Under the pieces are notes generated by a model. The model was not told where the DNA came from. It saw only the letters and a list, made by a program, of their open reading frames with translations, and did not search any database. Shown one piece after another: positions 17,677 to 37,502 of a stretch of DNA of 37,506 bases; the first letter of the stretch is position 1; the number at the start of each line of letters is the position of its first letter. Origin of the DNA: Campylobacteraceae bacterium. Its GTDB lineage: Bacteria; Campylobacterota; Campylobacteria; Campylobacterales; Sulfurovaceae. The stretch covers positions 1 to 37,506 of the forward strand of contig JALTGP010000044.1 in NCBI GenBank assembly GCA_027076905.1, given 5' to 3'. The position numbers and the translations under genes are program-made.

Positions 17677-19122
17677 ATGAGAAAGTATGATATATTGATA
17701 ATTGGTGCAGGTATAGCAGGGCTTTATTCTGCAATGAATATTCCAAAAGATAAAAAGGTTTTGGTAGTCTGTAAAGATATTCCGTGGGAGTGTAATACTT
17801 TTTATGCCCAAGGGGGAATAGTTACGGCATTAAATGAAGCCGACATCCCCTCACACGTAGAGGATACGATGTCTGCAGGGGCATTTCATAATGACAGGGA
17901 AGCGGTGGAGATTATGAGTCGAACCTCTATCGCTACGACCAAAGATATTATAGAAAGAGGAATGGAGTTTGACAGTGATGAGGAGGGAAATATTCTCTAC
18001 ACCAAAGAGGCAGCTCACTCAGCAGAGAGAATTATCCACGCAGGAGGGGATGCTACAGGGCGATATATGCACTACTTTATGATGGTTCAAAACAGGCATC
18101 AACTCCAAAGAAATACATTGGTTTATGACCTTTTAATAGAAAATGGTCGCTGTTATGGGGTGAATGCGTTGGTGAACTATCGACAAGAGACTATTTTAGC
18201 GGATGACGTGATTATTGCCTCAGGTGGTGTAGGGTCACTCTATGAATTTAACACCAATTCGCGAACTGTTTCAGCTGATATTCATGGTATCTGTGTTGAA
18301 AAAGGGATAGAATTAGCAGATATGGAGATGATGCAGTTTCATCCAACGGTATTTGTTAAGACTCCTTTTGCTAGAAAACTGTTACTAACTGAAGCACTAC
18401 GAGGAGAAGGGGCGTGGGTGGTTGCAGAAGATGGCAGACGCTTTTTGTTTGATTATGATGAGCGAGGAGAGTTGGCAAGTCGTGATATTGTAAGCCGAGC
18501 TATTTTTGACCATAAGAGAAAAACAGGGGAAGAGGTCTATTTGGATTTTTCTATGTTCGAAGAGAAGTGGTTTGCCAAACGTTTCCCCAATATTACACGA
18601 AGTTTTGAGGCGATTGGATATACGTTTCCACAAGACAGAGTCCCCATCTCCCCTGCATTTCACTACGCAGTAGGAGGAATAAAGTGTGATACTGATGGGT
18701 GTGTTGAGGGAATAGAAGGGCTGTATGTTATTGGTGAAGCATCAAGCACAGGAGTGCATGGAGCGAACCGTTTGGCATCAAACTCTCTACTTGAAGGGGT
18801 GGTATTTGCCAAACGGGCTGTTGACCATCTTCTAGCAAAAGCCTCTGTCGAGATAGTTGTGCCAAAATTTGATAAAGAGTATAAAAATATTGTTCATCAT
18901 GAAAAGGACACGGTTTACAAGCATCGTCTAAGAAAAATTATGTGGGATGAGATAGGGGTTATTCGTACTAAAAAAGGGCTACTTAAGGCCAAAAATGCGA
19001 TTTTTGACATGAAAAACCGTGATATTGGACGGCTATTGGAGCTTAGACTAAATACTGCCTCTGCCATTGTTGAGGCGGCATTGAAAAGAAAAGAGAGTTT
19101 GGGAACGCACTATGTAGAGTAA
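17677..19122 (+). CDS. nadB: L-aspartate oxidase
   Basis: DILIIGAGIAGLYSAMN; FYAQGGIVTAL; HSAERIIHAGGDATGRYM; QFHPTVF; GVHGANRLASNSLLEGVVFAKRA. Confidence 0.93.
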   Translation: MRKYDILIIGAGIAGLYSAMNIPKDKKVLVVCKDIPWECNTFYAQGGIVTALNEADIPSHVEDTMSAGAFHNDREAVEIMSRTSIATTKDIIERGMEFDSDEEGNILYTKEAAHSAERIIHAGGDATGRYMHYFMMVQNRHQLQRNTLVYDLLIENGRCYGVNALVNYRQETILADDVIIASGGVGSLYEFNTNSRTVSADIHGICVEKGIELADMEMMQFHPTVFVKTPFARKLLLTEALRGEGAWVVAEDGRRFLFDYDERGELASRDIVSRAIFDHKRKTGEEVYLDFSMFEEKWFAKRFPNITRSFEAIGYTFPQDRVPISPAFHYAVGGIKCDTDGCVEGIEGLYVIGEASSTGVHGANRLASNSLLEGVVFAKRAVDHLLAKASVEIVVPKFDKEYKNIVHHEKDTVYKHRLRKIMWDEIGVIRTKKGLLKAKNAIFDMKNRDIGRLLELRLNTASAIVEAALKRKESLGTHYVE

Positions 19123-19283
19123 GGAATACAAATTAAATAAGTGCCAGTTTTCATAGGTAAATAAACGAATAGATTTAGCTATAGTTTGACGCAGGACTAC
19201 TCCCCGTAATTCAAGGAAAATTAGAGTTAAAGATATTTGTTTAGTTGCCTTTGAAATTTGGTAGTTATTTAATTTGTATTCCT
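19122..19283. mobile_element. MITE-like 162-bp long imperfect hairpin with 19-bp perfect terminal inverted repeats and candidate TAA target duplication
   Basis: AGGAATACAAATTAAATAA (19122-19140) versus TTATTTAATTTGTATTCCT (19265-19283), perfect inverted repeat. Complementarity continues inward to about 67 nt per arm. TAA at 19120-19122 and 19283-19285. Confidence 0.75.
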
Positions 19284-19459
19284 AAGAGAAGTGTAGCATG
19301 TTAATAGTACTCTGAGAAAATTGATAAAAATTAGAAACATATTATATTTAAAAATCATAAATAGAAATAAAGTTTAAGCTGTAAGTGTTACGAAATAGCC
19401 TAGTTTCTCTCTTTTAAAATCCTCCTCTTTTATCGTGCCAAAAATTATATTTTTTTAAC

Positions 19460-19518: not shown

Positions 19519-20838
19519 ATGCACGATTTACATTTAGCTACCACGTGGGTAGGTTGGGTATCATTAGCAATCTTTATTATTGGATACTATTTTATTGCCG
19601 CAGAGGATACATATCGTATCAATAAAGCCAAACCAGCACTTTTAACAGGTACTGGTATCTTTATGCTTATTGGTGTATATTTTGCGATAAATGGCTTAGA
19701 TGGGCATATTCTTGAAAAAGAGGTAGAGCATTTGATTGTAGAGATTTCAGGAATTTTCTTCTTCTTATTTGTCGCAATGACCTATATTGAAGCGATGATT
19801 GACCGAGGTGTCTTTATGGCTTTACGTTATAACTTGGTCTCAAAAGGGTATAGTTATGGTAAACTTTTTTGGGTAACAGGTCTTTTGGCATTTTTTATCT
19901 CTCCTATTGCTGATAACTTAACCACCGCACTTATTCTTTCCACAGTTCTCTTGACAATTGATAAAGATAAAAGAGAGTTCTTAGTACCAAGTGCCATCAA
20001 TATCGTAGTCGCTGCTAATGCAGGTGGGGCATGGTCTCCTTTTGGAGATATCACCACACTAATGGTATGGGTAGATGGTAGAGCTGAGTTTACAGAGTTT
20101 CTCTTTTTATTTCCTGCAGCATTTTTGGGTTGGAGTGTAACAGCATTTCTCTTAAGCCGATTTGTACCAGAGGGAACACCTCCATTTAGCAGTGATGAAG
20201 AACCTACTCAGATTTTAGAGGGTGGTAATGTAATTATGGGACTTTTTGGTCTAACCATATTCTTTGCAATTATCTCTCATCAAGCACTTCATCTTCCTGC
20301 AATGTGGGGAATGCTGTTTGGTTTAGCCATCTTAAAACTCTACATCTATAAGATTAATGAGAGTGAGTCAGAGACACAGATTAATGTATTCTCATGGATT
20401 GCAAAAGTAGAGAATGATACACTTCTATTCTTCTTTGGTATCTTGGCAGCTGTTGGTGGACTTCATTTTCTTGGATTCCTCGAATATTTTACGGCACTCT
20501 ATGAGATATTTGGTGCAACAGCTGTCAATATTGGGGTTGGCTTCTTGTCTGCTGTAGTTGATAACGTTCCTGTTATGTCGGCTGTATTAAAAGCCAATCC
20601 AAATATGGGGACAGACCCTATGGCGATTCAAGAGCAGTGGATGCTAGTAACTATGACTGCAGGTGTGGGTGGGTCATTAATCTCATTTGGTTCAGCCGCA
20701 GGTGTAGGAGTTATGGGAAAAATGCATGGCATCTATACCTTTGCTTCTCATATGAAATTGGCTTGGACAGTACTTGTGGGATATATTGTTTCTGTAACTA
20801 TTTGGTTTATACAGTTCAATATGTTACACATAGGTTAA
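19519..20838 (+). CDS. nhaD: NhaD-type Na+/H+ antiporter
   Basis: ISPIADNLTTALILSTVLL; NIVVAANAGGAWSPFGDITTLMVW; AVVDNVPVMSAVL; GVGGSLISFGSAAGVGVMG. Confidence 0.93.
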   Translation: MHDLHLATTWVGWVSLAIFIIGYYFIAAEDTYRINKAKPALLTGTGIFMLIGVYFAINGLDGHILEKEVEHLIVEISGIFFFLFVAMTYIEAMIDRGVFMALRYNLVSKGYSYGKLFWVTGLLAFFISPIADNLTTALILSTVLLTIDKDKREFLVPSAINIVVAANAGGAWSPFGDITTLMVWVDGRAEFTEFLFLFPAAFLGWSVTAFLLSRFVPEGTPPFSSDEEPTQILEGGNVIMGLFGLTIFFAIISHQALHLPAMWGMLFGLAILKLYIYKINESESETQINVFSWIAKVENDTLLFFFGILAAVGGLHFLGFLEYFTALYEIFGATAVNIGVGFLSAVVDNVPVMSAVLKANPNMGTDPMAIQEQWMLVTMTAGVGGSLISFGSAAGVGVMGKMHGIYTFASHMKLAWTVLVGYIVSVTIWFIQFNMLHIG

Positions 20839-20864
20839 TTCTCATTTCTTAAATGGTGCGTTAC

Positions 20865-21245
20865 CAAAAATTAGCGTAAAGCCCCTTGCTTTAGCTATGG
20901 GGATATAAGCATACTTTAATTAAAAGAATTGTAGAATTTGAACAGAATAATATTTTTTGTTTTTTTATGTTATTTAAAATTCTTAAAATATCTGGTTGAG
21001 AATAGAATAGTCTTGTATTCTCATAAAATTTTAACAAGTTTGGTTTAATAGAAAATATATTGCGAAGGGTAAAATCTAGGATATATTTTAAATTTTTAAA
21101 ACAGAAATATGATAGAGAAGGGGCATCTTCTCTTAGTTCAGAAACTGTTAGACCTGCGTCAGTAGGCTAGTTTCGCTTATCCTAGAATCCCCCTGCTTTA
21201 GGAATGCAAATTAAATAAGTGCCAAAGCTATGGGGAGTATGTCAA
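20865..21245 (+). mobile_element. Decayed IS608/IS605-like element (381 bp), no intact TnpA or TnpB; left hairpin about 20882-20903, right end about 21189-21245
   Basis: TTAC at 20861-20864 as candidate left cleavage site; CCCCTTGCTTTAGCTATGGGGA hairpin, nearly the IS608 TnpA-recognition hairpin as I recall it; GAATCCCCCTGCTTTA...GCTATGGGGAGTATGTCAA at the right, ending in TCAA. Right-end hairpin is interrupted. Confidence 0.7.
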
Positions 21246-21274
21246 ATTAAAAAATAATCATAGGAATTACCTAC

Positions 21275-22810
21275 ATGAAACAAGTACCCATTCTAGTCCT
21301 CGATTTTGGCTCCCAATATACACAACTCATCGCAAGAAAACTAAGAGAGTCAGGAGTTTACTGTGAAGTTGTTCCTTACAGAGAAAACATTGCTAATATT
21401 AAAGCCCGTAAACCACAAGGTATTATCCTCTCTGGTGGTCCTGCTTCTGTCTATGCTGAAGATGCCTATAAACCAAGCGAAGAGCTTTGGTCCTTAGGGC
21501 TTCCCATACTAGGAATCTGTTATGGAATGCAGTTGATTACTCAGCGTTATGGTGGAGAGGTGGTAGCCGCCGACCATCATGAGTATGGAAAGGCAAAACT
21601 AACCCTAAATGAATCACCACTCTTTAGAGGTATGACTAATAATGAGATTGTATGGATGAGTCATGGAGATAGAGCAGAGAGAATTCCTGATAATTTTGAG
21701 GTGATTGGAACTTCGGAAAACTCTCCATTTGCAGCTATTGGAAATGAGGAGATGAAAGTCTATGCTTGTCAATTTCACCCAGAGGTTCACCACACTGTAG
21801 AGGGAACAAAGCTTCTTAAAAACTTTGCAAAATATATCTGTGGATGTGATAGTACTTGGAATATGGGTGGATTTGCAAAAGAGAAGATAAATGCCATTAA
21901 AGAGCAGGTTGGAGATAAAAAAGTTCTTTGTGGTGTGAGTGGTGGAGTTGACTCCTCTGTGGTTGCTGCGATGCTCAATGAAGCACTTCCCAAAGAGCAA
22001 CTTATCTGTGTTTTTGTGGATCAAGGATTGCTTCGTAAAGATGAGGCGGTGGATGTTAAAAATATGTTTAATCTTCTTGATATTCCTCTAATTACAGTAG
22101 ATGCCAAAGTAGAATTCATGAAGGCTTTGGAGGGGGTAAGTGACCCTGAGACCAAACGTAAAGTGATTGGTGAAAAGTTTATTGAGGTGTTTGATGCAGA
22201 GGCAAAAAAATATACCGATGTGGCATTTTTAGCACAAGGGACACTCTATACCGATGTAATTGAATCAGTTTCTGTTAAAGGACCTTCTAAAACCATTAAA
22301 TCTCACCACAATGTTGGGGGTCTTCCTGATTGGATGACCTTTGAGCTAGTTGAGCCTCTTAGAGAAATTTTTAAAGATGAGGTTAGAAAACTTGGACTTG
22401 AACTTGGACTTCCCAAAGAGATGATAGGTCGTCATCCATTCCCTGGACCTGGTCTTGCGATTCGAACCATGGGAGCGGTGACGCAAGAGGGGCTTCACCT
22501 GATTCGTGAGTCTGATGCGATTATGCAAGAGGAGCTAAAAGCCACAGGCTATTATGATAAAGTTTGGCAAGCATTTACCGTGCTTTTAAACGTGCAATCA
22601 GTGGGTGTTATGGGTGATAATCGTACTTATGATAACACTGTTTGTATAAGAATGGTAGAATCTGTTGATGGAATGACGGCAACCTTCGCACATATTCCAC
22701 ATGATGTGCTTGAAGGAATGAGTAGAAGAATTATTAATGAGATAGACGGGATAAATAGAGTAGTATATGATATCAGCTCAAAGCCACCTGCAACAATTGA
22801 GTGGGAGTAA
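21275..22810 (+). CDS. guaA: GMP synthase (glutamine-hydrolysing)
   Basis: [69 protein letters not shown]. Confidence 0.98.
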
Positions 22811-36638: not shown

Positions 36639-37502
36639 TTATTTTAAACACATAACTGACTCAACATTAGTTTTATCATACCAACCATTCAAACCATCAC
36701 GAAAATCTATAAGCCATGCAATTTTATTTCCAGATATAGTATAAGAAGACCAATAACGATTAGATCTAAACCCTTGTTCCCGATAACAGGATTGATAAAA
36801 CTTATTACAATTATTAAGAATTTCTTTTAATGCTGTACTTGTAGCTAATTCATATCCACTTTCATTACAAATTTTATTTGCATTTTGCCAATTAGCATGG
36901 CACTCATTATTTTTACTATTATAGTCTATATACTCTCCACCATTACTATTACAAGCAATTTTTGATGGTTTTACCCATTTACCATAGTAGAGTTCATCTC
37001 CTGATAAATATGTTGGTGTTGGTGTTGATGTTGATGTTGATGTTGATGTTGATGTTGATGTTGGTGTTGGTGTTGGTGTTGTTGGTGTTGTTGGTGTTGT
37101 TGGTGTTGGTGTTACTGTTGGAGTAGGTGTTACTGTTGGAGTAGGTGAGGAGACATTTACACTTCTTTCATCAGAATAACGGTCTAAAATGTCACGGTCA
37201 TAAAGAAGCATCTGAATATCTGTTGCTAACTGAATATCATCAGCACCAATTTTATCTTCTTTTAGAACATTATTAATTTGTATTAAAATTTTATTGCTCT
37301 CTACCCCTCTAACTCCTGCATTTTGGTAATCTTTAATTTGAGGCATTTTTGTCATGCCATTTGTACGTGCATACTCTCTAATTATTGATATCGCATTATC
37401 AGAAGCACTTACTTCTGTCTTCTCTGTTGTACCACATGATGTTAGTAGTATTAACGTTGAAAATAGTAGTGTTATACTTAATAAAAAAAATTTAAATTTC
37501 AT
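36639..37502 (-). CDS. Lipoprotein with Thr/Pro/Ser repeat linker and C-terminal DUF1566-like domain
   Basis: LLTSCGTTEKTEV lipobox; TPTPTVTPTPTVTPTPTTPTTP...TSTSTSTSTSTPTPT; WQNANKICNESGYELATSTALKEIL...YWSSYTISGNKIAWLIDFRDG. Confidence 0.82.
   Translation of the reverse strand: MKFKFFLLSITLLFSTLILLTSCGTTEKTEVSASDNAISIIREYARTNGMTKMPQIKDYQNAGVRGVESNKILIQINNVLKEDKIGADDIQLATDIQMLLYDRDILDRYSDERSVNVSSPTPTVTPTPTVTPTPTTPTTPTTPTPTPTSTSTSTSTSTSTPTPTYLSGDELYYGKWVKPSKIACNSNGGEYIDYNSKNNECHANWQNANKICNESGYELATSTALKEILNNCNKFYQSCYREQGFRSNRYWSSYTISGNKIAWLIDFRDGLNGWYDKTNVESVMCLK
37012..37147. repeat. In-frame tandem short repeats (GGTGTT/GATGTT hexamers, GTTGGTGTT 9-mers, and two 18-bp GTTACTGTTGGAGTAGGT units)
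   Basis: Visible directly: (gatgtt) x6 flanked by ggtgtt units, then gttggtgtt units, then the 18-mer twice. Confidence 0.9.

What the first reader, a model, noticed from the sequence alone, without database searches (positions are those of the whole stretch)
21189..21245. IS608-type right-end hairpin with about 26 bp of MITE terminus in its apical loop
Seen: CCCCCTGCTTTA[GGAATGCAAATTAAATAAGTGCCAAA]GCTATGGGGAGTATGTCAA. Without the bracket this is an almost canonical IS608 right-end hairpin ending in the TCAA cleavage sequence. The bracket matches the MITE left end at 19123 (GGAATACAAATTAAATAAGTGCCA) at 23 of 24 positions. One mobile element's terminus sits in the loop of another's TnpA recognition hairpin and can add a GCTTT/AAAGC stem. 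Inference: a nested insertion followed by loss of the rest of the MITE, or a previously undescribed hybrid end. The repeat of the same terminus 2 kb away is unlikely to be chance.
Basis: partly seen in the sequence, partly recalled or inferred. Interest (0 to 1): 0.72.

Follow-up and report, generated by a model that had tools for sequence, protein, structure and literature searches.

The report
Mobile-element scrap in another's hairpin loop
A 25-base leftover of one small mobile DNA element sits in the recognition hairpin of another small mobile element, a real but ordinary case of one genome parasite landing in a second and then decaying.

Summary
Window 20865-21245 is a 381-bp transposase-less element with IS608-type ends (a PATE). 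It has a TTAC target, AAAG and GAAT guides, two subterminal hairpins and a TCAA right end. Its right-end hairpin loop holds 25 extra bases (21201-21225) identical to the end of a 160-bp MITE. That MITE has 91 termini in this genome and makes 3-bp T[A/T]A target duplications.

A sibling PATE elsewhere in the same genome (92% identical) has the same hairpin without those bases. None of 96 other right-end matches of this type, from Helicobacter, Sulfurovum, Clostridioides and others, carries the insert. So it is secondary, not native.

The insert begins exactly at the MITE terminus, directly after a TTA target. Best reading: the MITE transposed into the hairpin loop, then a deletion removed the other 135 bp and one TTA copy. 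About 15 other decayed MITE copies in the genome show that such loss is common here.

The MITE shows no significant preference for hairpins. Insertion of small elements into PATE/IS605 palindromes is already described in Haloquadratum. Whether the hybrid hairpin still works is untested; no copy of it has spread. This is a well-documented curiosity, not a new kind of end.

The parts
20865..21245 (+). PATE: transposase-less IS200/IS605 (IS608-type) element, 381 bp, between ORF 19519-20838 and the guaA-like ORF starting at 21275
   Evidence: Ends, guides and hairpins read directly; sibling copy at G000:C259 about 36841-37186 (L009 842-1187), 92% identical; related copies in G142 and G174
20861..20864 (+). 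TTAC, left cleavage/target tetranucleotide
   Evidence: Sequence; TTAC also precedes the sibling copy
20878..20881 (+). AAAG, left guide
   Evidence: Sequence; conserved in left ends of relatives
20882..20902 (+). Left-end hairpin CCCCTTGCTTTAGCTATGGGG, intact
   Evidence: Sequence; the same in the sibling
21185..21188 (+). GAAT, right guide
   Evidence: Sequence; conserved in related right ends
21189..21235 (+). Right-end hairpin CCCCCTGCTTTA[insert]AGCTATGGGG, with enlarged loop
   Evidence: Distance between CCCC and GCTATGGGG is 33 nt here against 7-8 nt in relatives with an intact CCCC arm
21201..21225 (+). 25-nt remnant of the MITE left terminus (GGAATGCAAATTAAATAAGTGCCAA) in the loop, preceded by the TTA target 21198-21200
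   Evidence: 0 mismatches to GGAATRCAAATTAAATAAGTGCC; absent from the sibling
21242..21245 (+). TCAA, right cleavage tetranucleotide
   Evidence: Sequence
19123..19282 (+). Full-length 160-bp MITE, the family that supplied the remnant
   Evidence: 28 full-length copies with both flanks (26 own genome, 2 in G167), all 160 bp, 25 of them with a perfect 3-bp duplication
19120..19122 (+). TAA target duplication, left copy (also the stop codon of the upstream nadB-like ORF)
19283..19285 (+). TAA target duplication, right copy

Best explanation
A non-autonomous IS608-type element (PATE) upstream of guaA was hit by a 160-bp MITE, which transposed into the TTA of its right-end hairpin loop. A later deletion removed MITE bases 26-160 and one copy of the TTA duplication, leaving 25 bases in the loop. 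Shown: the sibling without the insert, the exact MITE terminus, and the family's T[A/T]A target. Inferred: the order of events and the deletion. The breakpoints share only about 1 nt, so slipped-strand or end-joining deletion of a palindrome is likelier than homologous recombination. The result is probably a weakened or dead right end, because the loop base that TnpA reads in IS608 (T10) is now in a different setting and can be paired. That last step is untested.
For: The sibling PATE in the same genome has TGCTTTAAGCTGTGGGGAGTATGTCAA where the window has TGCTTTA[25 nt]AGCTATGGGGAGTATGTCAA. In 96 other right-end matches the insert never occurs. The insert equals MITE bases 1-25 and starts directly after TTA, as the family's copies do. 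Full-length copies are 160 bp with perfect 3-bp duplications in 25 of 28. About 15 truncated or internally deleted copies lie away from contig ends, among them 35-bp and 53-bp forms and a second stub of about 24-26 nt. The MITE end in the loop matches the family consensus perfectly while the two PATE copies differ by about 8% including gaps, which fits a later MITE insertion. IS608 TnpA contacts T10 in the hairpin loop and the unpaired T17 (PMC8266576).
Against: No second TTA copy survives, so the duplication that would prove transposition is missing. No full-length MITE in the same hairpin is known from a relative. The right breakpoint falls within about 3 bp of the MITE end, which a random deletion would rarely do. 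The locus is seen in one fragmented assembly only (318 contigs, about 85% complete).
Confidence: 0.88

Rival explanations
1. A variant of the same path: a shorter MITE derivative (such as the 35-bp form GGAATGCAAATTAAATAAGTGCCAATTTGCATTCC) inserted, and only about 10-13 bp were lost afterwards.
For: Two 35-bp forms exist in the genome, at G000:C256 (L003/L042) and G000:C30:4818 (L059).
Against: Only two such forms are known against about 30 full-length copies; one has mismatched flanks (TTA/TAA), so their mobility is not shown.
Confidence: 0.2
2. The 25 nt were copied in during repair or template switching at the hairpin, without transposition.
For: There is no target duplication at the locus, and palindromes are prone to breakage and template switching (general knowledge).
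Against: The copied piece starts at the exact MITE terminus right after a T[A/T]A site, which repair copying would hit only by luck.
Confidence: 0.06
3. A new functional hybrid end: the enlarged loop with the GCTTT/AAAGC stem is recognised and the element moves with it.
For: Guides, lower stem, the T next to GGGG and TCAA are all intact; a GCTTT/AAAGC stem can form in a DNA fold.
Against: One copy only in the own genome; none in 96 other right-end matches; the fold is no better than shuffled sequence (z -0.67); no IS608-like TnpA gene was found in the own assembly.
Confidence: 0.04
4. Assembly artefact: a repeat was collapsed in a fragmented metagenome-type assembly.
For: Many MITE copies lie at contig ends in this assembly.
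Against: The remnant lies deep inside a contig with clean unique flanks, and its junction GTGCCAAAGC is not found in any other MITE copy examined.
Confidence: 0.03

Closest known systems
PATEs and IS605-type elements of Haloquadratum walsbyi with SMR-A elements or MITEs inserted in them (PMC3119063)
   Same: Small non-autonomous elements inserted into transposase-less IS605-type elements; SMR-A insert within the near-terminal palindromes, and 30 of 31 nested MITE insertions lie in PATEs or IS605-type elements
   Different: Here only 25 nt of the inserted element remain. SMR-A make no target duplication, whereas this MITE makes a T[A/T]A duplication and shows no significant hairpin preference
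IS608 and related IS200/IS605-family elements
   Same: TTAC target, AAAG and GAAT guides, CCCC-GGGG hairpins, TCAA end. An autonomous element with the same type of ends and an IS200 transposase gene is present in Campylobacteraceae bacterium BB28 (L131)
   Different: No transposase gene, and the right-end loop is enlarged by 25 nt
Bacterial MITEs with 3-bp T[A/T]A duplications (resembles targets of some IS5-family groups; assignment from memory)
   Same: 160 bp, imperfect foldback, terminal inverted repeats, T[A/T]A duplication
   Different: No parent transposase with these ends was found, so the family is not assigned

Membership tests
IS200/IS605 (IS608-type) derived PATE | Subterminal palindromes, no terminal inverted repeats, no target duplication | tested here: met
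   Hairpins at 20882-20902 and 21189-21235; TTAC on the left, TCAA on the right, different flanks on the two copies
IS200/IS605 (IS608-type) derived PATE | Guide tetranucleotides and cleavage sites as in IS608 | tested here: met
   AAAG with TTAC, GAAT with TCAA; the same right end in dozens of relatives, one with an adjacent IS200 tnpA. The IS608 assignment of these tetranucleotides is from memory
IS200/IS605 (IS608-type) derived PATE | Too short to code for a transposase | tested here: met
   381 bp; no ORF of 80 aa or more lies within 20865-21245
IS200/IS605 (IS608-type) derived PATE | Mobilised in trans by a TnpA | not testable with these tools
   No IS608-like TnpA in the own assembly; only a 479-aa frame with a weaker Y1 match (E 3e-13). 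The assembly is about 85% complete
IS200/IS605 (IS608-type) derived PATE | Right-end hairpin with a short loop | tested here: not met
   The window copy has a 33-nt spacing instead of 7-8; the sibling copy meets it. This bears on the copy's integrity, not on its descent
MITE with T[A/T]A duplication | Terminal inverted repeats, fixed length, target duplication, many copies | tested here: met
   160 bp, TIR of about 23 bp, 25 of 28 perfect duplications, 91 termini
MITE with T[A/T]A duplication | The loop remnant is itself a complete MITE | tested here: not met
   25 of 160 bp, one end only, no second TTA
MITE with T[A/T]A duplication | Shares ends with an autonomous parent element | tested here: inconclusive
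   None found among PF01609 genes of three genomes or by end pattern in 397 genomes; a transposase near a MITE end in G167 appears to have other ends of its own

The most novel reading that the evidence does not exclude
The hybrid right end is still recognised and cut by an IS608-type transposase, so such transposases tolerate large loop insertions and a PATE could carry another element's terminus as part of its own end.
Probability: 0.05. Interest if true: 0.4.

Novelty: new member of a known kind. Interest (0 to 1): 0.14.

Why it matters
It is a clean example, with a sibling control in the same genome, of one small mobile element landing in the recognition hairpin of another and decaying there. 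It offers a natural loop-insertion variant for testing how much loop change an IS608-type transposase tolerates. Otherwise it adds a bacterial (Campylobacterota) case to a pattern already described in a haloarchaeon.

Tried and rejected
Native hybrid end: rejected, 96 other right-end matches lack the insert. Chance or low-complexity match: rejected. A second MITE-in-hairpin case at G000:C69 (L047, GAATCCCCTTAGGAATAC): no GGGG arm or TCAA follows, so not counted. MITE preference for hairpin targets: mean stem 4.4 against 4.0 in controls, p = 0.22; mean fold energy -3.0 against -2.5, p = 0.17; a slight excess of long stems (4 of 28 with 7 or more against 5% of controls) is not convincing. MITE parent: the DDE transposase at G167:C62 near a MITE end seemed promising, but its own ends seem to read CATAACTTTCTACACAAC, so it is probably a neighbour. 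PATE parent: the ten strongest IS200-type genes of the genus show no matching ends in the flanks fetched. Empty PATE site upstream of guaA in relatives: the intergenic region is too diverged for an exact empty site. Viral contigs contain no such MITE end.

Full report
What is there. The quoted sequence is present at the stated place. It is the right end of a 381-bp element (20865-21245) that follows the tetranucleotide TTAC, carries AAAG before its left hairpin and GAAT before its right hairpin, and ends in TCAA. It has no ORF of 80 aa or more. This is the anatomy of a transposase-less IS608-type element, called a PATE in the literature (PMC3119063). The IS608 tetranucleotides are from my own knowledge.

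Related ends. An autonomous element with the same type of ends was found in Campylobacteraceae bacterium BB28 (L131). It has TTAC..GTAAAGCCCC on the left, GAATCCCCTAGCTTTAGCTATGGGGAGTATGTCAA on the right, about 1.68 kb in all, and a tnpA whose product matches Y1_Tnp (E 4e-43) and NCBIfam IS200/IS605 transposase (E 6e-46).

The control copy. The own genome holds a second copy of the PATE at contig C259 (L009 842-1187, 346 bp). The two align at 92% identity. Besides a 10-base internal gap, the one large difference is 25 bases present only in the window's right-end loop: TGCTTTA[GGAATGCAAATTAAATAAGTGCCAA]AGCTATGGGG against TGCTTTAAGCTGTGGGG. An exact-pattern scan of the right end in GTDB genomes and viral contigs gave 96 further matches, many in Helicobacter but also in Clostridioides, Selenomonadaceae, Synergistales, Sulfurovum and others; a few are probably chance sites. 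None carries the insert. Where the CCCC arm is intact next to the hairpin the spacing is 7 or 8 bases, against 33 in the window. The insert is therefore secondary.

The donor. The 25 bases are the terminus of a 160-bp MITE, of which 19123-19282 is a full copy. In the own genome there are 49 + 42 termini and about 30 full-length copies. All 28 copies analysed with both flanks (26 own, 2 in G167) are 160 bp, and 25 have a perfect 3-bp duplication, TAA or TTA in all but one case. Of 175 genomes of the family, only G167 also has this MITE. The remnant starts at the exact MITE end and directly after TTA, as expected for transposition into the loop; the right-hand TTA is gone.

How it came about. 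The simplest path is insertion at TTA in the loop followed by a deletion of MITE bases 26-160 plus one TTA. The breakpoints share about one base. Loss of MITE sequence is common here: about 15 copies away from contig ends are truncated or internally deleted, with retained pieces of about 24 to 121 bp, including two 35-bp forms, one 53-bp form, and a second stub of about 24-26 bases at G000:C99 (L045). A 35-bp derivative as the starting point cannot be excluded. The MITE end matches the family consensus perfectly while the PATE copies differ by about 8% including gaps, so the MITE probably arrived later.

What it does. Probably nothing now. In IS608, TnpA contacts T10 in the hairpin loop and holds the unpaired T17 (PMC8266576). 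With the insert the loop is 25 bases longer, and the old loop bases TTT can pair with AAA in a GCTTT/AAAGC stem. DNA folding gives -6.4 kcal/mol for the hybrid and -5.3 for the sibling, but the hybrid is not better than shuffles (z -0.67). No copy of the hybrid end occurs elsewhere in the genome. The own assembly shows no IS608-like TnpA, although it is only about 85% complete. Whether the hybrid end can be cut is open.

Targeting. The MITE's targets were tested for hairpins by rebuilding 28 empty sites and comparing them with 1105 nearby T[A/T]A sites. There is no significant preference (p = 0.22 for stem length, 0.17 for fold energy).

Novelty. Insertion of small elements into the palindromes of PATEs and IS605-type elements is described for Haloquadratum, where 54% of 192 nested insertions are SMR-A elements in such elements and 30 of 31 nested MITE insertions lie in them (PMC3119063). 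The present case is a new, decayed example in a bacterium. Interest is low.

Noticed in passing
L067:227, L137, L151, L152, L163:4657, L165, L194, L200, L204: Single-hairpin elements of 46-48 bp with the IS608 left guide and the right TCAA end on one hairpin (TTAC..GTAAAGCCCC..GGGGAGTATGTCAA), in Helicobacter, Sulfurovum and others. They resemble the 52-bp terminal-only PATEs reported in Haloquadratum.
   Followed up: partly
window 20850-21275: The PATE insertion lies close to where other members of the genus have a conserved -10-like TATAAT upstream of guaA, so it may have altered guaA transcription.
   Followed up: partly
window 19120-19122: The full MITE at 19123 inserted exactly at the TAA stop codon of the nadB-like ORF 17677-19122, the duplication keeping the stop.
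   Followed up: no
L042/L003 (G000:C256:19393 onward), L059 (G000:C30:4818), L053 (G000:C30:37128-37180): 35-bp and 53-bp miniature forms of the MITE; the first is a near-perfect 16-bp palindrome including its flanks and lacks a matching duplication, suggesting template switching.
   Followed up: partly
L095, L101, L104, L106 (G054): A different foldback repeat with related ends (GGAATAGAACTAAAATAACTACC) in another genus of the family.
   Followed up: no
L229 (G000:C22:1906-2232): An open frame of about 470-480 aa with a moderate Y1_Tnp match recurs across the genus and may be a domesticated HUH protein.
   Followed up: no
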